DNA of 64,000 bases. It comes from Verrucomicrobiota bacterium. Lineage in GTDB: Bacteria > Verrucomicrobiota > Verrucomicrobiia > Limisphaerales > PALSA-1396. This document shows, one piece after another, positions 11,852-57,750 of the stretch. Position 1 is the first letter of the stretch; each line of letters starts with the position of its first letter. Location: positions 1 through 64,000 of the forward strand of contig JACQFP010000062.1 in the NCBI GenBank assembly GCA_016200005.1. Direction: 5' to 3'. Below the pieces are notes generated by a model that saw nothing but the letters and a program-made list of their open reading frames with translations, was not told where the DNA came from and made no database searches. Both the position numbers and the translations under genes were made by a program.

Positions 11852-11926
<75 letters not shown>

Positions 11927-45358: not shown

Positions 45359-45716
45359 GGCCAGCCCTCATTCGCGCCAGAACAGCTACCCTTTCCTCGT
45401 CCAGTGACCATGCAAGCTGGTAGAGCTTCTGTTTCGCGTCCTGGTCGAGTATTCGCCTGGCGACGGCTTCCGCGACATGACTCCACTGGGCGGTTTCCTT
45501 ATCGACGCGTGTTCTCAAGCACGCCGCCACAGAGGATGCGGCCAGCGATGGTTTCCGTAGCGCGGCGAGTGTCTGGATCAATTCCAGCGTTTGCTGCCAG
45601 TCGGTTTCATGAGCCAACTCGGTTTTGCCTCTGGCGGCGAGCAACACATGATTGAGTGATCGGGAGAACTGGTCCAACCGGTCGTAGAAGCAGGAATCAA
45701 ATCCAATTGAGCTCAT
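45351..45716 (-). CDS. Small helical protein downstream of Argonaute
   Basis: A 121-residue, all-helical protein (MSSIGFDSCFYDRLDQFSRS...) with leucine- and alanine-rich helices throughout. Its ATG overlaps the Argonaute stop (ATGA), and its own end overlaps the metallopeptidase gene by 8 bases. This tight coupling suggests a partner of one of the two. No family recognised. Confidence 0.65.
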   Translation of the reverse strand: MSSIGFDSCFYDRLDQFSRSLNHVLLAARGKTELAHETDWQQTLELIQTLAALRKPSLAASSVAACLRTRVDKETAQWSHVAEAVARRILDQDAKQKLYQLAWSLDEERVAVLARMRAGHA

Positions 45717-48085
45717 TTGGTGATCTCTTCTTGTAGATCGTCTGTTTCGGTTTCCTCCTTGTGCTCGGTACCATCCTCACCAAGCCAGCGGTCATTGAGT
45801 TTGATGGTGATGGGATCGCGCGAGCAATCCTCGGGGCGTGTCCACGCCAAGCAACTCAGGGCAAAAACATCATCAAGGCAATCTTCAATGCTCATGCTCC
45901 CGTTGTTCTTGATAACGTGAAGTGGCTTTGCAGTGCCGCCATGTCGGAACGCTCGCCCGGTAGTACAAACGAATCCTTCCGTTGCATTCAGCGCATAGTA
46001 ATTCCCGATCTGTGGATTCTGGACATGTGGCCCGCCATAATCGGTGATAGAAAGATCGAACAGACGAAGTGCCACTGGTGCCGTCTTTGGAATTTCGACA
46101 AAAGTGACTTGGGTATCGGCGCCAACTATTCCATCTGCTTTGAGCTTAGCCAGTCCCAAGTTGATGCCTTTAATCTCCGTATCGTAAAGACGACCGTCTC
46201 GGTGAATAACGATGTGTTTGAGGGGATGACTGTCTTGCTGCAACAGGCGGGTGCTGACCTCACAGAAATAGTCTTTGCATTGCTTGGGCATCAACTTCTC
46301 TTTCTGCTGCGATTTTCGGTGAAACGGCACAATGATGTTGCCCGACTTATTGGTTGCGATGAACCCCGCCATGTTGCCTTTGACATCAATGCCGACGATG
46401 GCGTCAGCGTGCATTGGCGTGGCTAGCACGAACGGCCACTTTTGGTTGAGCAGCAGTATTTTGTTAATGGCGACGTTCCGGAAGTAGCCCTTGAGCCGCT
46501 TCTCTGCTCTTTGATCCTTCGGCTTATACACTGTTCGCCCGTGTCCATCCGCAGCGGAACCATAACAATTGTGCCCCACGGTTGTATGGATAACTGACGC
46601 CCGCAGGTCGAATTGCTCTCTAAGCTGCTGAATTATGTGTGAGGCAGAGGTGTCTTCTTGCCGGGGCCGACGACGTTGGTTCTCCGGAATCATAACCACA
46701 GCAAATCCGCCGCGCTTCACTTCACTGGCCGCCTTGCTGAAAATCGCGGCACATATTTGTTGAAACGTTCTAGCGTTGCGATCCGCATAGCTGACGAATT
46801 GTGGTGAGAACCCGCTTTCTTGTGGAAAAAGATCGTCCACGGTTGCGCACAGTGCGTTGAACAGCGCCGGGCCGAAGGTTTCGTGAACGCTTTGTGGCAT
46901 AAAGAAGCAAAAGTTGTCCAACGGGCTGGCTTCGTAAAAGCCAACACTCTTGTCTTTCAGCAAAGACAGACGTTTAAGACCAAGATCATCGAGGCTGACT
47001 TGAATCGTCCCTGGCGTGGCCCGCGTTGACAGCGTTGTTGAGCAACCGAATTGGAAGTCTGGAACCGGGAAGAGCTTGGGCGTCGTGCTGATGGGCTTGG
47101 AACTAACTTTCATTTCGCTATCTCCAAAGCGCAGTTTCTTAAGGTAATTTTCGACGAAGGAGTGGATGAACTGCCGTCTGACGCCCGGTTCAATTGAAAG
47201 GCTAGGAAATTCATCTTGGGCCGTTGGATCGTCATTGCCGACTACACGATAACAGAGGTTGGCGGCTGCTGACCGTTTGTCTTCGCGGTTGTCGTTATAC
47301 ATGACGACCGCGCAGTTTTTGGAGAGGTTGGCAATTTCAGGCGGCAGCGGTTTTTCGCATTGATCGAGAATATAATCGTAAAGCACAACCGGCTTCCCAT
47401 TGATGGGAAACTTTTGCTGCGACACATTAAAGGCGCTGAAGTCGGTCAGTGTGACCTCGTACCATTGCAAACCGAAGTGATAAATGAAGTGCTGGCCTTT
47501 GAAGCGTTGAAATTCTTGGCGGTCAAGATGTGTGGGCAATGCGTGGTTGAACACCAGTTTGGAAACAGCGTCAACGCAAAGGCCGATGTCCCCCGAAGGA
47601 GTGAGGATGGGCCGAATGGAATATCCGCGATACATGTTGAGCCTCTCACCCCGGTTACACGGCTGCCGTTCGAAAAACGCCTTGCCTGAGCCTGGCTGCC
47701 AAAGATTGCGGTGAACGCGTAGCGGGTTTTGCACGAGGAAGCTAATGAAGCGCATGCAGATGTCATCGTTCTTAGGAGAGCGCACCGTGTAATCGAGGTG
47801 GACTTGGTCTGCCAGTGGTTCAAAGACAACCTGTGTTCGGACGAGGAACATATCCTTGGGTGGCGCGGGAGCGTCATCCTTCACCACCAACACGGGCTCA
47901 CCATGTTCCTCGATTACTGCTACCGGCGACCGCAGCCTGAAGCTGAGCTTTCGCGTGATATGCTGGCGGTTCTGGTAGTATTCGTCTTGGTCCTTGTGGA
48001 GGTTTACAATCCGGTACGTGCGGTACTTGGACGATAAATCACCAAGATTGGTAATGCGGAATATGTTGGATTCGATCTCGCTCAT
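45713..48085 (-). CDS. Long prokaryotic Argonaute with intact catalytic tetrad
   Basis: A 790-residue prokaryotic Argonaute. The C-terminal PIWI domain carries all four expected catalytic residues: D567 in IVGIDVKG, E596 (glutamate finger, QQKEKLM), D630 in VIHRDGR, and D765 in PITIKLND, aligned by spacing with the active site of Thermus thermophilus Argonaute. The MID region (about 470-555) has FAVVMIPE and YKPKDQRAEKRLKGYF; the N-terminal half would hold the N and PAZ-like domains, which I cannot delimit. Such enzymes use short guides to cut invading nucleic acid. It is the third gene of the operon, overlapping its neighbours by 4 bases on each side (ATGA). Confidence 0.88.
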   Translation of the reverse strand: MSEIESNIFRITNLGDLSSKYRTYRIVNLHKDQDEYYQNRQHITRKLSFRLRSPVAVIEEHGEPVLVVKDDAPAPPKDMFLVRTQVVFEPLADQVHLDYTVRSPKNDDICMRFISFLVQNPLRVHRNLWQPGSGKAFFERQPCNRGERLNMYRGYSIRPILTPSGDIGLCVDAVSKLVFNHALPTHLDRQEFQRFKGQHFIYHFGLQWYEVTLTDFSAFNVSQQKFPINGKPVVLYDYILDQCEKPLPPEIANLSKNCAVVMYNDNREDKRSAAANLCYRVVGNDDPTAQDEFPSLSIEPGVRRQFIHSFVENYLKKLRFGDSEMKVSSKPISTTPKLFPVPDFQFGCSTTLSTRATPGTIQVSLDDLGLKRLSLLKDKSVGFYEASPLDNFCFFMPQSVHETFGPALFNALCATVDDLFPQESGFSPQFVSYADRNARTFQQICAAIFSKAASEVKRGGFAVVMIPENQRRRPRQEDTSASHIIQQLREQFDLRASVIHTTVGHNCYGSAADGHGRTVYKPKDQRAEKRLKGYFRNVAINKILLLNQKWPFVLATPMHADAIVGIDVKGNMAGFIATNKSGNIIVPFHRKSQQKEKLMPKQCKDYFCEVSTRLLQQDSHPLKHIVIHRDGRLYDTEIKGINLGLAKLKADGIVGADTQVTFVEIPKTAPVALRLFDLSITDYGGPHVQNPQIGNYYALNATEGFVCTTGRAFRHGGTAKPLHVIKNNGSMSIEDCLDDVFALSCLAWTRPEDCSRDPITIKLNDRWLGEDGTEHKEETETDDLQEEITK

Positions 48086-49026
48086 GATTGTACCTCAAAG
48101 CATAGTTTTCGGAAGTTGCAGGTTTGACAAACCCCGGCCCAGTTTGTCGTTGGAAAATCTTCGGCGGATAACTCCTTGTTTTCCCGCCCATCCACCGCCA
48201 ACAGCATTTGCTGAATTTCCGTGGCCATACGATCCTCGACCGCCTGAATGTCTTCTTCGCTGATCAAATGCGTTCGTGCTTCGTTGGTGAGCAGTTGTGC
48301 CTCGACCAGGCGAACGGTGTGTGCAGGATGCCGTCTCAGTTCTGCCGGCAATCCCTTGTGTTCGCCGCAGCGGGTCAGAGTGATGGCATAGGCGACAAGC
48401 TGTTGGTAGTAATCGTGAACCCCAAAATGGTGAACCTTCCAGTCTATGATCAAAGGCGACTTGTCGCGGAAAAGGCAGATGAGGTCCGGGACCGCGCGAA
48501 CCGTGGCACCCATGTAGCGGAAAGTGATGGGACACTGCGCAGCAAGCCAGTTGGCCGATTTGATATTGTCCCTGACTTCTTGAAATTGGGAGCTCTGAAA
48601 AAGGTTTGCCAGCGCCTTAAGCACTTCGGTCCTCGCGAGATCAATCTCGTCTTGTTCGGGAGTCCCTCCGTATTCCACCACAAAGAAAGCAGCTAGGTCG
48701 TCCTCGTGCTCGGACGCCTTGAAACCAATCTCTCGTATGCGGCGGTTCAACGCAAAGTCGAGTTGAGCGTCAAATATCTTGTTGGCCGCCTGTGTGGCAG
48801 TCTGAAGTGTTACGATGATTTTCCGTTGGAGGGCGGGAACAACAACCTTTTCGATAACTTGATCTACAACTTTTCCACGCCAAGCGCTGATAGAAGACAA
48901 TTTGCTCAGAAGGTATGCCTCTCGACGCCGGGGATCTTTGGAGATCGCGTTCGCAAGGCGCTTGTTAAAAAACCACTGACGTTGGCACTTCCGGAACAGC
49001 TTGCCTTCTGAGAACGACCAGATCAT
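48082..49026 (-). CDS. Cas4-like Fe-S PD-(D/E)XK nuclease
   Basis: A 314-residue RecB/Cas4-type nuclease. C14 (FRKCQRQWF) and the C-terminal C300, C303 and C309 (CQTCNFRKLC) form the four-cysteine iron-sulfur cluster pattern of Cas4 and AddB. The active site reads PDLICLF (D181), IIDWKV (D195, K197) and the QxxxY motif QLVAY (Q209, Y213). Cas4 nucleases process DNA ends; here one could make guides or degrade targets for the Argonaute. ATG 49026 overlaps the XRE gene's stop (ATGA), and its end overlaps the Argonaute start, so the three genes are translated together. Confidence 0.85.
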   Translation of the reverse strand: MIWSFSEGKLFRKCQRQWFFNKRLANAISKDPRRREAYLLSKLSSISAWRGKVVDQVIEKVVVPALQRKIIVTLQTATQAANKIFDAQLDFALNRRIREIGFKASEHEDDLAAFFVVEYGGTPEQDEIDLARTEVLKALANLFQSSQFQEVRDNIKSANWLAAQCPITFRYMGATVRAVPDLICLFRDKSPLIIDWKVHHFGVHDYYQQLVAYAITLTRCGEHKGLPAELRRHPAHTVRLVEAQLLTNEARTHLISEEDIQAVEDRMATEIQQMLLAVDGRENKELSAEDFPTTNWAGVCQTCNFRKLCFEVQS

Positions 49027-49379
49027 CTGCCCTTCCTCTTCTTCGCTCGAAGAAATTCCATGTAATCGATCAGTGCGTCTTCTTCTTCCGGAGTTGTCCG
49101 CCCCAGCCGGGCTAAGAGGTGCTGTTGTTTCGTGGCACCTGGCATCCCATCCGGCAATGGATAGCCAGCGTATTCCATGGCCAAGGCATACGGAATTTCG
49201 TAGAGCTTGCAAAGTTTGTGAAGGTCAACCGGGGAAGGGCGCTGGACTTTCGCACCCTCCATCTGGCTCAAATAGGCGTTCGAGATACCAGTCGATTCTT
49301 CGACTGCGCGCAAGGATAGCGCCACACGCTCTCTGCCTCGCTTGAGAAACTGCCCGAGTTTGTTTAGGTCGTTGTTCAT
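49023..49379 (-). CDS. XRE-family transcriptional regulator heading the Argonaute operon
   Basis: A 118-residue regulator with an N-terminal helix-turn-helix (residues 5-65): LGQFLKRGRERVALSLRAVEE, STGISNAYLSQMEGAK, then LHKLCKLYEI. The C-terminal 45 residues are helical and may dimerise or sense a signal. ATG 49379 is preferred to an upstream frame start at 49418 that would overlap the promoter. A palindrome overlapping the -35 element just upstream suggests that it represses its own operon. Confidence 0.88.
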   Translation of the reverse strand: MNNDLNKLGQFLKRGRERVALSLRAVEESTGISNAYLSQMEGAKVQRPSPVDLHKLCKLYEIPYALAMEYAGYPLPDGMPGATKQQHLLARLGRTTPEEEDALIDYMEFLRAKKRKGR

Positions 49380-49390
49380 GTCTTGTGCAT

Positions 49391-49420
49391 AAAATACAAA
49401 GCGTGCTTGATATGTCAAGC
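49391..49420 (-). promoter_or_regulatory. Promoter and palindromic operator of the Argonaute operon
   Basis: On the minus strand TTGACA (49413-49418) and TATTTT (49391-49396) are separated by 16 bases, a sigma-70-type promoter ending 12 bases before the XRE start. GCTTGA and TCAAGC form a perfect 6-base inverted repeat with a 4-base spacer (49405-49420) overlapping the -35. This is the expected place for an XRE repressor to block its own operon. The divergent gene at 49481 may share the site. Confidence 0.6.
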
Positions 49421-52567: not shown

Positions 52568-53557
52568 ATGAACAAGCAATTCATCGGTTTCGACCGATTG
52601 AAACAATCCATATCCATGGAGCAGGTGTTGGGGCGGTATGGATTATTGGAAACGCTGCGACGCGGCGCGGACAGCCTGAGCGGGGTCTGTCCGTTGCATC
52701 GCGGCCACAACTCGACGCAGTTCCGGGTGAACCTGGTGAAGAACTGCTGGATCTGTTTCGGAGACTGTCACGGCGGCGGGAGCATCGTGGACTTCGTGAG
52801 CCAGATGGAAAAGGTCGGCATCCGGGAGGCCGGGCTGTTGTTACAGGACTGGTTTAACCTCGAATCGGGCAATGGGCATGAAGCCCTTCGTCCGGTGGCA
52901 AAGGAGAAAGTCATCCCGATTCGGAAGGAAACCAATCCGCCCTTGCGCTTCTCATTGGGGGCACTGGACGGAGCGCATTCGTATCTGACAAAGCGCGGGC
53001 TGACACCAGAAACCATCCGCACTTTCGGCTTGGGGTATTGTTCGCGCGGAATGTTGCGAGGTTGGGTTGCGATTCCGATTCACGACGCGAAAGGAAATCT
53101 GGTGGCGTATGCCAGTCGCTGGCCGGGCACACCGCCGGACGAACAGCCCAAATACCGTCTGCCGTGCGGTTTCCGAAAGTCGCTCGAACTGTTCAACCAA
53201 CATCGGGCGGTGAAGGAAAGCGCTGCCGAATCACTGGTGGTGGTCGAAGGATTCTTCGGGTGCATGAGAATATGGCAGGCAGGCCATCGCCGGGTCGTGT
53301 CGCTGATGGGCAGCATGTTGTCACCGGGACAGGAAGATTGCATCGTGCAACTCGCCGGAGAGAGTGGTCATGTGCTGCTGTTGTTCGATGAGGACGCGGC
53401 GGGAAGAAAAGGCAGGGCCGAAGCACAGGAACGGTTAGGCAAGCACGTCGTTGTGAACATCGTCCGGCTGGCTGAAGGGCAACAGCCTGATTCGCTTGAA
53501 CCGGAAGCACTCCTGGCATTGATCGAGCAACATTCGGAGAAGGGAGTGGCCGCATGA
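52568..53557 (+). CDS. DnaG-type primase with CHC2 zinc finger and Toprim domain
   Basis: A 329-residue primase, much shorter than chromosomal DnaG. The zinc site is C41, H44, C60, C63 (VCPLHRGHN... CWIC), and the catalytic Toprim domain has E227 (VVVEGFFG) and D274-x-D276 (LLFDEDAAGR). The C-terminal helicase-binding domain is missing. Such primases are carried by plasmids and integrative elements to start their own replication. Its stop overlaps the radC start (ATGA). Confidence 0.9.
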   Translation: MNKQFIGFDRLKQSISMEQVLGRYGLLETLRRGADSLSGVCPLHRGHNSTQFRVNLVKNCWICFGDCHGGGSIVDFVSQMEKVGIREAGLLLQDWFNLESGNGHEALRPVAKEKVIPIRKETNPPLRFSLGALDGAHSYLTKRGLTPETIRTFGLGYCSRGMLRGWVAIPIHDAKGNLVAYASRWPGTPPDEQPKYRLPCGFRKSLELFNQHRAVKESAAESLVVVEGFFGCMRIWQAGHRRVVSLMGSMLSPGQEDCIVQLAGESGHVLLLFDEDAAGRKGRAEAQERLGKHVVVNIVRLAEGQQPDSLEPEALLALIEQHSEKGVAA

Positions 53558-54012
53558 AACCACCGCAGGAGTTCAAGGTGGTGTCGTTGCGGGAATGTCC
53601 GACCCCGGAAACGCTGCTGATCTGTGAGACGCCCGAACAGGTGGCGGAATACTGGCGGCTGAACATCACGAGCAATCCGTATTACAACTCGGATTGCGAA
53701 TGTCTGGCCGTGTTGCTGTTGAACACGCGAAGGCGGGTCAAAGGCCATCAACTGCTGAGCTTCGGCACGATCGACACTCTGCTTGTTGACGTTCGCACGG
53801 TGTTTCGCGGCGCAATCATTGCCAGCGCTGCCGCCCTGGTGCTGGCACACAATCACCCTTCGGGTGACCCCACACCGAGCGAAGCGGACATCAAAGTCAC
53901 ACGCGACCTGATTCGTGCCGGGCAACTGCTCAAAATTGAAGTCTTGGACCACGTCATCATTGGCGTGGGCCGGCATTCGTCTCTTCGAAGTCTGGGCTAT
54001 TTCGCCTGTTAG
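53554..54012 (+). CDS. radC: RadC-family JAMM/MPN+ protein
   Basis: A 152-residue RadC domain protein. The JAMM metal site is complete: HNH at 99-101, seven residues, then S109-x-x-D112 (HNHPSGDPTPSEAD). The family is common on mobile elements; despite the old name its role in DNA repair is doubtful, and peptidase or nuclease activity has been proposed. It lacks the N-terminal helix-hairpin-helix of chromosomal RadC. It is translationally coupled to the primase gene. Confidence 0.92.
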   Translation: MKPPQEFKVVSLRECPTPETLLICETPEQVAEYWRLNITSNPYYNSDCECLAVLLLNTRRRVKGHQLLSFGTIDTLLVDVRTVFRGAIIASAAALVLAHNHPSGDPTPSEADIKVTRDLIRAGQLLKIEVLDHVIIGVGRHSSLRSLGYFAC

Positions 54013-54079: not shown

Positions 54080-54200
54080 GACTCAACCGAAGAACTCATA
54101 CCAAGTCGAAACGCCGCGAGGCGTCTGTGCGTATGCGCGCACACTGATGAGACTCAATCTCGCAGCCAACAAACGAACAATGAAAGGTTAGAACAACAGT

Positions 54201-54422
54201 ATGAAAAACATCACAGTCAAATACGGCGTGGACAGCATCACCAAGCAGGTCGAGGACGACTTCACGTTCGGCGACTTGCAGGAGAGTGATGTGTTCAAGG
54301 CCGCCCTCGGCTTTGGCGACCACACCAAGGCGCTGGTGGAAGGCATCGAACAGGACCGCAGCACGGTGATCCCGGCCGGGGCCACGGTGCGTCTGGAGAC
54401 CGCCGCCAACACCAAGGCGTAA
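54201..54422 (+). CDS. Candidate ubiquitin-like beta-grasp modifier
   Basis: A 73-residue protein whose pattern of strand-turn-strand, helix, loop and final strand (KNITVKYG...FTFGDL...KAALGFGDH...GATVRLETA) suits a beta-grasp fold of the ubiquitin-like type. It does not end in Gly-Gly but in NTKA, so if it is a modifier the tail would need processing or use another terminus. The main support is context: E2-like, E1-like and JAMM genes follow within 3.4 kb, as in PRTRC-like and other bacterial ubiquitin-like operons. It may correspond to the PRTRC protein C position. The fold call is inference. Confidence 0.5.
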   Translation: MKNITVKYGVDSITKQVEDDFTFGDLQESDVFKAALGFGDHTKALVEGIEQDRSTVIPAGATVRLETAANTKA

Positions 54423-54440
54423 ACCACAACCCCTGACTGG

Positions 54441-54480
54441 AGAGCCCGCTTCCTTCACCGGAGGCGGGCTTTCCTTTTTC
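54441..54480 (+). terminator. Strong terminator between the modifier and E2-like genes
   Basis: A long hairpin (54441-54454 with 54461-54474, loop TTCACC, with a few G-U pairs) centred on AGCCCGC/GCGGGCT is followed by a T-rich tract (54471-54480). The next ATG lies four bases after the tract, leaving almost no room for a promoter or ribosome binding site. Confidence 0.85.
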
Positions 54481-54484
54481 CACC

Positions 54485-55180
54485 ATGGAAACCACAGAAA
54501 TCATCATCCGGGAAAACGGGACTCTCACCCAGAGAGTCATACGCGAACGCGATCTGAAAGCCGAGCAATCGGTACTGGACGCGTTGACGGAGGGAATGAC
54601 GCGGATCATTCGGAATGTCCTGTCATTGCCTGAATGGGGCTTGGTACATGCCAATGTTGGCAACAACGACACGATCTGGTCGGCAGTCATTGACCGGATT
54701 CCGTTGCACGCACGGTTTCGGTTGATCAACAACGTACTTGTGCCGGCGTTCGCGTCGGCGAGCGACGTCGAGATGCAGCTGGTCTGGCGCGCGCCCAAGG
54801 AAATGCGCCTGGCCTTCGTGGTTCGCACCGCGGTCGAAAACGATTGCGTCAAAATTGACGGCAATTGGCTCTTCGCCTGTGACCAAGACCACCGAGGTTA
54901 CCGGCTGCCCCTGCCCAACCTGCACGACGATTGCCTGATCTGCACGGGCAATTTCGACGACCGGTACGACTCCGGCGGCGAGTGTGTCACCGCCAGCCTG
55001 GAGCAATTCCGCAAATCCAAGTGGAACGCCGACCTGATGCGAACGGTGGAGCGGTCGCAGAAGTTCTTCCGGTTTCAGCCGACGAACGAGACGTTTGAGA
55101 CACTGCCGATCGAGGCGGCGGATTGGACGTCGCTCTGTGACAAGGTGTCCACGGACATCATGGAAAGGGTCGTCGTATGA
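54485..55180 (+). CDS. E2-like/PRTRC-B-like protein
   Basis: A 231-residue protein. Residues 139-157 contain LPNLHDDCLIC: Pro-Asn, seven residues, then cysteine C153, the exact spacing of the HPN...IC motif of ubiquitin E2 enzymes, with the usual histidine replaced by leucine. The segment also resembles the N-(L/V)-(F/H)-x-D-G-x-V/I-C-x-G signature I recall from PRTRC protein B. The first 110 residues are less conserved. It would carry the modifier on C153. No ribosome binding site is visible, since a terminator abuts the ATG. It overlaps the next gene by 4 bases. Confidence 0.6.
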   Translation: METTEIIIRENGTLTQRVIRERDLKAEQSVLDALTEGMTRIIRNVLSLPEWGLVHANVGNNDTIWSAVIDRIPLHARFRLINNVLVPAFASASDVEMQLVWRAPKEMRLAFVVRTAVENDCVKIDGNWLFACDQDHRGYRLPLPNLHDDCLICTGNFDDRYDSGGECVTASLEQFRKSKWNADLMRTVERSQKFFRFQPTNETFETLPIEAADWTSLCDKVSTDIMERVVV

Positions 55181-55512
55181 CTGCCCCGGCCAAATCCAGC
55201 GGGCTGCTGCCGCTGGTCACAAAACTGAAAGCCTGCCCAACACTGGACGACAGCTTCTCTCAGAAGCTGCTAATCGAGACGTGGGGCTGCTTGAAACGAA
55301 CCGACCTGGAACACGGCGACGAACTCACCCCCTCCATCATGGCGGGTCTGGTGCTGTTTGACGAAGAACACTTTGTGCGGCTGCTAAACGAGGCGGAGCA
55401 TTCGCAACTGGCTGCCCTGGCCAAAACGGCCCTGGAGCGATTCAAGGAAAAATCCAATCCGCCCAACAAACTCGGCAAAACCATTGCCGCAGCCCTGAAG
55501 GAGAAAATATGA
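55177..55512 (+). CDS. Hypothetical protein between E2-like and E1-like genes
   Basis: A 111-residue helical protein (MTAPAKSSGLLPLVTKLKAC...) overlapping both neighbours by 4 bases (ATGA). No family is recognised. Its position inside the E2-E1 unit suggests an adaptor of that pathway. Confidence 0.6.
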   Translation: MTAPAKSSGLLPLVTKLKACPTLDDSFSQKLLIETWGCLKRTDLEHGDELTPSIMAGLVLFDEEHFVRLLNEAEHSQLAALAKTALERFKEKSNPPNKLGKTIAAALKEKI

Positions 55513-56168
55513 ACTACATCATCGGTTGCGGGGGCGTGGGTTCGGCCATCGTCCCCTCATTCTGCCTGCTCAGGAGTCCTGACGAGATCACCCTGATTGA
55601 CGGCGACACCATCGAACGGAAAAACCTCAACCGCCAGATGTTTGACGCCAGCCAGATCGGGATGAACAAGGCACAGGCCTTGGCAGGCAGATTCGGATGC
55701 CGCTCCCTCCCGGAGTGGTTCGCGCGCGGCAACATCCGCCATTTCAGGAATGATTGGCTGATCTGCCTTGTGGACAATCATCGCGCGCGCCTCGAAACGC
55801 TCGAGGAGTGTGACGACTACGGCTGCCAGGCCATCATCGCCGCAAACGAGATGCACTCGGCGGAAGCATACTACTACCGGCGGGTCTGGAAGGGCACACC
55901 GCGCGACCCGCGCGTTTACTACCCGGAGTTGACAACCGACCACAGCGGCGATCCGCGCGCGGCGTCGATTGGTTGCACGGGTGAGGTTCAGGAAAACAAC
56001 CGGCAATTGGTATCGGCGAACCTGATGGCGGCGGCCTTGGCGGAACACCTGTTCGTGTTGTGGCAGATGAAAGCACCACGGCTGGACAAGGAGACGGTCG
56101 AGTTGCTGCCCTACAGATTCGCGGCCAACCTGACCCAACTGGAAACCTACCGGCAGAAAGGAGGATAA
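55509..56168 (+). CDS. ThiF/E1-like adenylating enzyme
   Basis: A 219-residue E1-like enzyme that would adenylate the C-terminus of a modifier with ATP. It starts directly with the Rossmann nucleotide loop (IIGCGGVGSAIV, residues 4-15), followed by ITLIDGDTIERKNLNRQ (D31/D33, N41, R42) and K54 in GMNKAQA, the ATP-binding set of the family. C156 in SIGCTGEVQENNRQ is the probable thioester cysteine in the crossover loop. The zinc-binding CxxC pairs of MoeB/ThiF are missing. It matches the ThiF-related member of PRTRC cassettes. AAGGAG precedes the ATG, and it overlaps the previous gene by 4 bases. Confidence 0.85.
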   Translation: MNYIIGCGGVGSAIVPSFCLLRSPDEITLIDGDTIERKNLNRQMFDASQIGMNKAQALAGRFGCRSLPEWFARGNIRHFRNDWLICLVDNHRARLETLEECDDYGCQAIIAANEMHSAEAYYYRRVWKGTPRDPRVYYPELTTDHSGDPRAASIGCTGEVQENNRQLVSANLMAAALAEHLFVLWQMKAPRLDKETVELLPYRFAANLTQLETYRQKGG

Positions 56169-56169
56169 C

Positions 56170-56787
56170 ATGAGTGAAGTCATGACCGCGCCTCAACCAG
56201 TGGAGCGCAAATGTCGGCTCGAGGAAGTGTTCGATGCGAACTTTATCGGGCTCATCCGGCTCGTGCCAAGAAATCCGTTCGTCCGGGCGTTGATCCTGAA
56301 GCTGGCGGGGAAGATGCCCGGGCCGGAGCGCGAAACGTTCGAACAGATCAAGGAGTGGGTGGAAACGAACTGCGACAAGCGGGTCAGACCTGCGTCCGTC
56401 CGAAGGGGCAGAAACAACCCGGATGACGGCATCGCGATCAACGTCGAGTTCTCGGAGACGGAATACGGTCGGGCGGATTATTCTGTGCCGCGCTCCGGTA
56501 GCGAAGAGTTCCGCATCGACGCCGAGGACCTGATGGAGATGGTTCAAGCGGCCGTTGACGCGGGCGAGGGTGTTGACGGAATCGTGGAAGTCATCGCCGA
56601 GAAAATTGACGGTGACGCGTGGAACCAGTGCAACCCAGACCTGGATAACTACGGGGACTACGACTACAGCGAACAAGAAGCGACCGATTCTGGAAATTGC
56701 GGAACCAGCTACTCCAAAAACGAGATTCGCAATGCCGTGCTTGCCTTCGTGCGGGAACGGCATCCGGAACTGGCGGCGGAACTATAA
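56170..56787 (+). CDS. Hypothetical acidic protein in the E1/JAMM unit
   Basis: A 205-residue protein, acidic in its second half (about 115-180), with no family recognised. AAAGGAGG gives a strong ribosome binding site. One base separates it from the E1-like gene, and 12 bases from the JAMM gene. It may be a substrate, adaptor or PRTRC-type accessory protein. Confidence 0.65.
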   Translation: MSEVMTAPQPVERKCRLEEVFDANFIGLIRLVPRNPFVRALILKLAGKMPGPERETFEQIKEWVETNCDKRVRPASVRRGRNNPDDGIAINVEFSETEYGRADYSVPRSGSEEFRIDAEDLMEMVQAAVDAGEGVDGIVEVIAEKIDGDAWNQCNPDLDNYGDYDYSEQEATDSGNCGTSYSKNEIRNAVLAFVRERHPELAAEL

Positions 56788-56799
56788 CGAAAGGAAAAA

Positions 56800-57750
56800 A
56801 TGAAACTCATCAAGATCAACAAACCACAAGTCAGTGAAACGAAGGAAGTCCCCGGCCTCTTGAACTGCCGGATCGAGTACGAGGTCAAGACGGCCAAGGG
56901 AAGGTTGGAGTATGTCGGGCCGAAGTTCGCGCCGGAGATGTGGCATCAGGTGCTGTCGTTCTTCCGGTGGACGCACAAGGAGATGCAGAGCGAGAGCCAG
57001 GTGCGTCTCTACGTCAACCACAAGCTGGGACGTTGGGGCGCGTGGGCGTTTCCACAGGTGGCCCGCACAGGGATGAGCGCAAGAGAACTGCCGACGCCCG
57101 AGACACCGGAGCAGGCGCAGGAACGGTTTGCCTCGTGGCAATCCGAGCCGTCGGATGACTGGCTCTACTTCGGCACCGTGCATCACCATTGCTCGGCCAG
57201 TGCGTTCCAGTCCTCGACGGACGAGCAGAACGAATGGAATCAGGACGGGCTGCACCTCACGGTGGGCCGGATGGATGCGGAGCAGCACGACCTGCACGCC
57301 CGGCTGTATGTGGACGGCAATTGCTTCGAGCCGGACCTGAGTCAATTCTGGCCGATTGATCCGGGACTGGCGGCCATGATTCCGCCCGGCATGCTCAACG
57401 AACTGGCGCGTTTCCAGATGAGCGCGAAGGTCACGGTGGACTTTCCCGACGCCTGGAGAACGAACATGGTGGACGTGCAAACAGAACGGCCATCGTGGGA
57501 TCGCAATCCGCAGTGGGGCTTGGACCGATCGGAACTGGGGCCGCTCTTATACGCCCGGGTGGATGAAGCGCTGGAGGAAATCCATCGGCGCTGCGCGGCC
57601 GATTCGGTCGGAGAGGAAGAGTGGTTGGCTGAATTGAGCACGCTCGCGGCAAGCGAAATCAGCCAGATCATCATCGAGGCCTGTGTGAAGCACGGCGTCA
57701 CACCCGATGAACTCCTCGTCGAGATGGCCCAAGGCCCGTTCGACTACTGA
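56800..57750 (+). CDS. JAMM/MPN+ isopeptidase-like protein
   Basis: A 316-residue protein with a complete JAMM zinc site: H128-x-H130, seven residues, S138-x-x-D141 (HHHCSASAFQSSTDE), with a preceding glutamate candidate in APEMWHQV (E46). The following strand (DGLHLTVGRMD) and LHARLYVDG suit the JAB fold. In eukaryotes and bacterial ubiquitin-like operons JAMM proteases remove the modifier from its target; that role is likely here because E1-like and E2-like genes lie just upstream. The C-terminal 120 residues are helical and unassigned. GAAAGGA precedes the ATG. It may occupy the place of PRTRC protein A. Confidence 0.82.
   Translation: MKLIKINKPQVSETKEVPGLLNCRIEYEVKTAKGRLEYVGPKFAPEMWHQVLSFFRWTHKEMQSESQVRLYVNHKLGRWGAWAFPQVARTGMSARELPTPETPEQAQERFASWQSEPSDDWLYFGTVHHHCSASAFQSSTDEQNEWNQDGLHLTVGRMDAEQHDLHARLYVDGNCFEPDLSQFWPIDPGLAAMIPPGMLNELARFQMSAKVTVDFPDAWRTNMVDVQTERPSWDRNPQWGLDRSELGPLLYARVDEALEEIHRRCAADSVGEEEWLAELSTLAASEISQIIIEACVKHGVTPDELLVEMAQGPFDY

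What the first reader, a model, noticed from the sequence alone, without database searches (positions are those of the whole stretch)
54201..57750. Candidate ubiquitin-like conjugation and deconjugation pathway in mobile DNA
Within 3.5 kb lie a beta-grasp-like small protein, an E2-like protein, a ThiF/E1-like enzyme and a JAMM isopeptidase, plus two unknown proteins. The content parallels PRTRC cassettes and the Bil-type phage-defence operons, but the order and the two extra proteins (111 and 205 residues) differ from what I know. The surrounding primase, RadC and ligase suggest that a plasmid-like element carries it.
Basis: partly seen in the sequence, partly recalled or inferred. Interest (0 to 1): 0.85.

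Follow-up and report, generated by a model that had tools for sequence, protein, structure and literature searches.

The report
Phage-borne ubiquitin-like tagging gene cassette
Six adjacent genes encode what looks like a complete miniature ubiquitin system (tag, activating enzyme, conjugating enzyme, tag remover, two unknown partners), and the same cassette recurs in dozens of uncultured bacterial viruses, which suggests that phages carry their own protein-tagging pathway.

Summary
All six ORFs lie at the stated coordinates, on one strand, in the order Ubl, E2, p111, E1 (ThiF), p205, JAMM. The 73-residue protein is predicted with high confidence to have the ubiquitin fold. The 231-residue protein carries the E2 signature (PN-x7-C, as in LPNIYDTGKICTG of relatives), with Asn and Cys invariant in 53 of 53 homologues, although its own fold model is only moderate. 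E1 residues and the JAMM E/HxHx7Sx2D are invariant in at least 64 of 65 and in 70 of 70 homologues. The Ubl ends in an almost invariant Lys-Ala, followed in some relatives by tails of 1-31 residues, as expected of a processed precursor.

The main new result is that the cassette is mostly viral: 69 IMG/VR loci (several near-identical); 48 of 48 loci with all four core genes keep order and strand. Some carry terminase and portal genes. It is a sister group of plasmid PRTRC cassettes, not a member of PRTRC, Bil or CBASS. A terminator-like hairpin follows the Ubl gene almost everywhere; a hammerhead-like leader precedes it in three members.

Conjugation itself and the targets are inferred, not shown.

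The parts
54104..54154 (+). Type II hammerhead-ribozyme-like leader; predicted cleavage after C54125, 75 nt before the Ubl start
   Evidence: Full catalytic core and three stems; only hit of a core-plus-stems scan in the window, with L008 and L013 the other independent hits in 2.9 Mb scanned; the L008 copy matches Rfam RF02276 at 21.2 bits (gathering 37), E 0.025; the window copy itself is not reported by Rfam
54201..54422 (+). Ubl: 73-aa ubiquitin-fold modifier ending ETAANTKA
   Evidence: AlphaFold2 pLDDT 90.5; Foldseek and VIA hits to ubiquitin, NEDD8, ISG15, Z up to 9.6; K72 in 52/52 and A73 in 51/52 homologues
54439..54480 (+). Terminator-like hairpin plus T-run between Ubl and the enzyme genes
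   Evidence: hairpin with z < -3 in 32 of 42 distinct gaps of the family, sequences unrelated
54485..55180 (+). E2-like conjugating enzyme, catalytic N145 and C153 (PN-x7-C-x-G)
   Evidence: hhalign to PRTRC_B score 41 against shuffle maximum 20; N145, C153, G155, D183, L184 in 53/53; AF2 pLDDT 75, top VIA hit UBE2L6 Z 5.5
55177..55512 (+). p111: small protein, unknown; position always between E2 and E1
   Evidence: A 77-190 aa ORF stands here in all 48 loci with the four core genes; no family match
55509..56168 (+). E1-like ThiF adenylyltransferase, single domain, Cys156, without N-terminal extension
   Evidence: PF00899 3.9e-13; hhalign 98% to PRTRC_ThiF; D31, D33, R42, K54, D89, C156, N171 in 65/65
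56170..56787 (+). p205: unknown acidic/Tyr-rich protein, present in the window's clade, not found in the marine clade
56800..57750 (+). JAMM metalloprotease (E65, H128, H130, S138, D141), presumed deconjugase and Ubl processor
   Evidence: HxHx7SxxD in 71/71; E65, H128, H130, S138, D141 in 70/70; weak PRTRC_A match
53554..54012 (+). RadC-family JAB protein, neighbour; also next to the cassette in G548
   Evidence: PF04002 2.7e-36; 57% identical RadC beside the cassette in G548

Best explanation
The cassette encodes a self-contained, reversible ubiquitin-like conjugation pathway carried by phages and other mobile DNA. The Ubl is made in excess from its own short transcript (the terminator-like hairpin limits read-through into the enzyme genes). 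Where a tail follows Lys-Ala, the JAMM protein removes it. The ThiF-like E1 adenylates the C-terminal Ala and takes it as a thioester on Cys156. The E2 receives it on Cys153 and, with no E3 in sight, transfers it to lysines of target proteins. The JAMM protein reverses the link. p111 (always between E2 and E1) is most likely an E1 or E2 partner; p205 a substrate adaptor or target. Biological role, by inference: modification of host or phage proteins around early infection (about 0.4), exclusion of competing phages by tagging their proteins (about 0.3), or control of element replication/maintenance as suspected for PRTRC-like loci (about 0.3). Shown: gene content, order, conservation of catalytic residues, predicted Ubl fold, viral carriers. 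Inferred: every chemical step, processing, transcript stoichiometry, targets.
For: Ubl fold. Conserved Lys-Ala terminus with variable tails, from none to 31 aa. E2 Asn-x7-Cys spacing and invariance, profile link to PRTRC_B above all shuffles, and a bridging E2 in L032 hit by both profiles. E1. JAMM residues 70/70. Same order and strand in 48 of 48 loci. Virus carriers: terminase matches (1e-28 to 1e-29) on two marine contigs and a portal/head-tail protein (2e-89) on one of them. Tree: window inside a 20-row clade with 14 viral contigs, 98/95. Ubl-E2 hairpin. Purifying selection.
Against: No experiment shows any conjugate. The E2 fold was not recovered by Foldseek and VIA Z 5.5 is weak. The Ubl ends in Ala, not Gly-Gly. 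The E1 lacks the N-terminal segment that holds the arginine finger in MoeB/ThiF (own knowledge). No E3-like protein recognised. p111 and p205 unexplained. Role within infection rests only on gene position.
Confidence: 0.8

Rival explanations
1. It is a phage-defence system of the Bil type: the mobile element tags structural proteins of competing phages.
For: Same enzyme classes as Bil (PMC11354881); the window element also carries a class II pAgo with a Cas4-like nuclease, and in G548 the cassette sits near AbiE-like genes by my reading.
Against: Most copies found are in phage genomes; in the marine clade beside what read as DNA-replication genes. No PADLOC match except generic E1-E2.
Confidence: 0.3
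2. It serves replication, partition or maintenance of the element, as suspected for PRTRC cassettes.
For: Closest enzyme relatives are PRTRC A, B and ThiF; neighbours are primase, SSB, RadC, ligase; ParB-like ORFs by eye downstream in L024 and L025.
Against: ParB-like reading not confirmed by Pfam; neighbourhood differs between clades; PRTRC function itself is unknown.
Confidence: 0.28
3. Sulfur-carrier pathway: the Ubl is thiocarboxylated by E1 as ThiS/MoaD are.
For: ThiF-like E1; JAB proteins occur with some sulfur-carrier operons (PMC1779556).
Against: E2 with invariant Cys accompanies the E1 wherever the locus is complete; no rhodanese or sulfurtransferase seen in the cassette; terminus is Lys-Ala, not Gly-Gly.
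Confidence: 0.06

Closest known systems
PRTRC cassettes (NCBIfam PRTRC_A, B, C, E, F, ThiF); apparently operon type 6d of Iyer et al. 2006 (PMC1779556), by content
   Same: Separate Ubl, E2, E1 and JAMM genes on mobile DNA; homologous E1, E2, JAMM by profile; Ubl tail ends T/A-K-G there, N-T-K-A here
   Different: All curated PRTRC cut-offs missed; no E or F homologue detected; order Ubl-E2-p111-E1-p205-JAMM versus E-C-F-B-A-ThiF; separate clade; mostly viral
Bil (BilABCD) anti-phage operons
   Same: Ubl, E2, JAMM, E1 in one operon; Ubl precursor processed by the JAMM (PMC11354881)
   Different: BilA has two Ubl domains and BilD has inactive and active adenylation and Cys domains; here one 73-aa Ubl and a 219-aa single-domain E1; two extra genes
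CBASS Cap2/Cap3
   Same: E1/E2 chemistry with JAB removal (own knowledge; PMC10097602)
   Different: Cap2 fuses E2 and E1 and conjugates the CD-NTase (own knowledge); here separate genes and a true Ubl; only generic ThiF-domain matches to PADLOC E1-E2 models
crAss-like phage ThiF + metalloprotease pair (cr126_1)
   Same: Adjacent JAMM-motif and ThiF genes in a phage
   Different: No Ubl or E2 detected with these profiles or the motif in the eight neighbouring proteins

Membership tests
Ubiquitin-like beta-grasp modifiers | ubiquitin fold | tested here: met
   predicted model pLDDT 90.5, Z up to 9.6 over 66-69 residues
Ubiquitin-like beta-grasp modifiers | conserved, exposed C-terminal tail usable for conjugation | tested here: met
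   flexible tail (residues 71-73 under pLDDT 50); K72 52/52, A73 51/52; extra tails in some relatives. Ala instead of Gly
E2 / Prok-E2_D | catalytic Asn and Cys at canonical N-x7-C spacing | tested here: met
   53/53; relatives read LPNIYDTGKICTG
E2 / Prok-E2_D | E2 fold | tested here: inconclusive
   pLDDT 75; Foldseek nothing; VIA best UBE2L6 Z 5.5
E2 / Prok-E2_D | Pfam PF14460 at gathering score | tested here: not met
   window copy no match; 3 of 6 members weak, best E 0.022
ThiF/E1 | GxGG, D, R, K adenylation residues and Cys | tested here: met
   PF00899 above cut-off; residues in 64-65 of 65
JAMM | E and H-x-H-x7-S-x2-D | tested here: met
   motif 71/71; E65 70/70
PRTRC system | curated scores for PRTRC_A and PRTRC_ThiF | tested here: not met
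   18.5 vs 101.8 and 34.2 vs 144.75 bits
PRTRC system | homologues of C, E and F | tested here: not met
   no NCBIfam hit, hhalign at noise for Ubl, p111, p205; very distant homology of the Ubls is not excluded
PRTRC system | gene order E-C-F-B-A-ThiF | tested here: not met
   against 119
PRTRC system | ParB-related gene next to cassette | tested here: inconclusive
   none recognised among scanned window neighbours; not every ORF scanned
Bil | two-domain BilA and two-part E1 BilD | tested here: not met
   73-aa single Ubl, 219-aa single-domain E1
Bil | tags phage structural proteins, gives defence | not testable with these tools
   needs plaque assays and mass spectrometry
CBASS | E1-E2 fusion with CD-NTase | tested here: not met
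   separate genes; no CD-NTase seen among genes scanned
Hammerhead ribozyme type II | catalytic core with three stems | tested here: met
   window, L008, L013
Hammerhead ribozyme type II | Rfam RF02276 gathering score | tested here: not met
   21.2 vs 37 bits in L008; window copy not reported

The most novel reading that the evidence does not exclude
A large set of uncultured tailed phages carries its own complete, E3-less ubiquitin-like conjugation and deconjugation pathway, with a Lys-Ala-ended modifier made from a separately terminated transcript, used to modify proteins during infection; the window copy is one that has settled in a bacterial chromosome.
Probability: 0.55. Interest if true: 0.88.

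Novelty: new variant of a known kind. Interest (0 to 1): 0.7.

Why it matters
Bacterial ubiquitin-like pathways are known as host defence (Bil, CBASS) or on plasmids (PRTRC, function unknown). A full pathway in dozens of phage genomes would mean that viruses of bacteria also tag proteins in this way, gives a compact five-to-six-gene system for study, and gives the PRTRC puzzle a testable relative. Papers found here describe no complete phage-borne Ubl/E1/E2/JAMM operon, but the library is partial. No INPHARED phage record gave a match to the window JAMM protein, and only the crAss-like pair matched a marine-clade E1.

Tried and rejected
Chance ORFs or pseudogenes: rejected (dN/dS, synteny). 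Plain PRTRC membership: curated scores and order not met. phrog_2 as proof of phage in L024/L025 from the whole-record search: it rings in 13 of 14 control genomes, so only single-protein scans are used (about 1e-7 for the L024/L025 contigs, 1e-28 to 1e-29 for marine ones). A tRNA-derived repeat to bound the element: none found. Ubl against phages and plasmids by tblastn: no match; E2 against plasmids: no match. Foldseek on the E2 model: nothing useful. Exact hammerhead pattern in viral contigs: 0. Rfam on the L024 leader and the L088 Ubl-E2 gap: nothing. p111 and p205 by Pfam, NCBIfam, PHROGs, PADLOC: nothing convincing. Terminase in the window's contig: no match there.

Full report
Observation. 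E2/p111 and p111/E1 overlap by four bases, E1/p205 and p205/JAMM are 1-12 bases apart, and only Ubl and E2 are separated (62 nt). Relatives in metagenome-assembled bacterial contigs have the same genes in the same order. Coding constraint is clear for all six (dN/dS 0.09-0.43 where dS could be estimated).

What each protein is. Ubl: AlphaFold2 with six sequences gives pLDDT 90.5, strands and helices in ubiquitin order and a floppy tail; Foldseek lists ubiquitin, NEDD8 and SUMO entries, VIA-align Z up to 9.6. E1: ThiF above the Pfam cut-off. E2: existing libraries miss the window copy; profile comparison with nine plasmid PRTRC_B proteins gives score 41 against a shuffle maximum of 20, aligned around the Cys. 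Homologues found later read LPNIYDTGKICTG or IPNVYDDGRICTG, with the Asn-x7-Cys of E2 enzymes (that spacing is from my own knowledge of E2 enzymes). The window E2's own structure model is moderate (pLDDT 75), Foldseek finds nothing, and VIA-align puts an E2, UBE2L6, first at Z 5.5, which is weak support. JAMM: the metal motif is intact. p111 and p205 stay unknown.

Wider family. Profile-guided scans of IMG/VR gave 69 loci with a JAMM relative. With four core genes found, 48 of 48 loci (46 viral plus two bacterial bins; several nearly identical to each other) keep Ubl-E2-E1-JAMM on one strand, always with a small ORF between E2 and E1. Sequence homology of that small ORF is shown only within the window's clade; elsewhere it is positional. 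p205 is detected in the window's clade and in L063-L065, but not in the large marine clade, where E1 and JAMM adjoin. Catalytic residues are invariant throughout. Two marine contigs carry terminase matches at 1e-28 to 1e-29, and one of them a portal/head-tail protein at 2e-89; the terminase match in the L024 and L025 contigs is only about 1e-7. In an E1 tree the window lies in a 20-row clade (98/95) of six bacterial-genome rows and 14 viral contigs, and the whole family is apart from PRTRC (100/95). Sampling is biased: the JAMM profile scan was of viruses only; in 384 genomes of the window's class only the window's genome and G548 have this JAMM. In G548 the cassette, with RadC, lies on a contig with phosphate-transport-like genes by my reading, so a second chromosomal copy exists.

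Expression anatomy. A terminator-like hairpin fills the Ubl-E2 gap; in 32 of 42 distinct gaps the fold is more than three standard deviations better than shuffles, with unrelated sequences. Upstream of Ubl in the window, L008 and L013 stands a type II hammerhead-like core with compensatory change in stem II; Rfam supports L008 only, below its gathering score. These suggest separate control of modifier and enzymes; neither was tested.

Ubl terminus. Lys-Ala is nearly invariant; tails after it vary from none to 31 residues (L061). Plasmid PRTRC C proteins mostly end in T/A-K-G and some cyanobacterial and viral relatives continue after it. Processing by the JAMM protein is the natural reading, as reported for BilA/BilC (PMC11354881).

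Setting. The window is 1-64000 of an 84.6-kb contig. tRNA-Thr (11852-11926) lies left, metabolic-looking genes right of about 66 kb; no att repeat was found, so element bounds are unproven. The same stretch has a class II pAgo with a Cas4-like nuclease, an integrase, primase, RadC, SSB, ligase and DUF1257.

Verdict. The chemistry is very likely a reversible Ubl conjugation pathway; the biology is open. New variant of a known kind, unusual for its viral home.

Noticed in passing
window 45713-49418, - strand: Class II prokaryotic Argonaute (PADLOC 6e-269) with Cas4-like nuclease (5e-105) and an HTH protein: a defence module near the cassette.
   Followed up: partly
Ubl-E2 gaps of L072, L074, L081, L088, L096: Conserved motif CCTCCTGAGCACGAGATGAAACTGC (one-base variants) between Ubl and E2 in part of the marine clade, twice in L088; no Rfam match in L088.
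   Followed up: partly
L010 1290-1441: Where other close members have the hammerhead-like leader, L010 has a different hairpin.
   Followed up: no
p111 position of L066-L117 (e.g. L074 8845-9177, L080 8811-9176): Marine p111 equivalents share an almost invariant GRKRGA(I/V)LRYI; the E1s lack an N-terminal arginine-finger segment, so p111 might supply it (speculation).
   Followed up: no
L009 4192-4404: A second copy of the last ~65 residues of the JAMM protein lies about 1.8 kb downstream of the full gene.
   Followed up: no
L118 (crAss-like phage cr126_1) 4373-6639: JAMM-motif protein next to a ThiF protein, without detected Ubl or E2.
   Followed up: partly
L032 10268-12071 and 12513-13376: In genome G296 an intermediate E2 and JAMM, hit by both the cassette and the PRTRC profiles, lie next to a reverse-transcriptase-like ORF (by eye).
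   Followed up: partly
window 62153-64866: DUF1257 and, by eye, a DUF2997-like ORF and an AAA ATPase resembling ycf46, downstream of the cassette.
   Followed up: no
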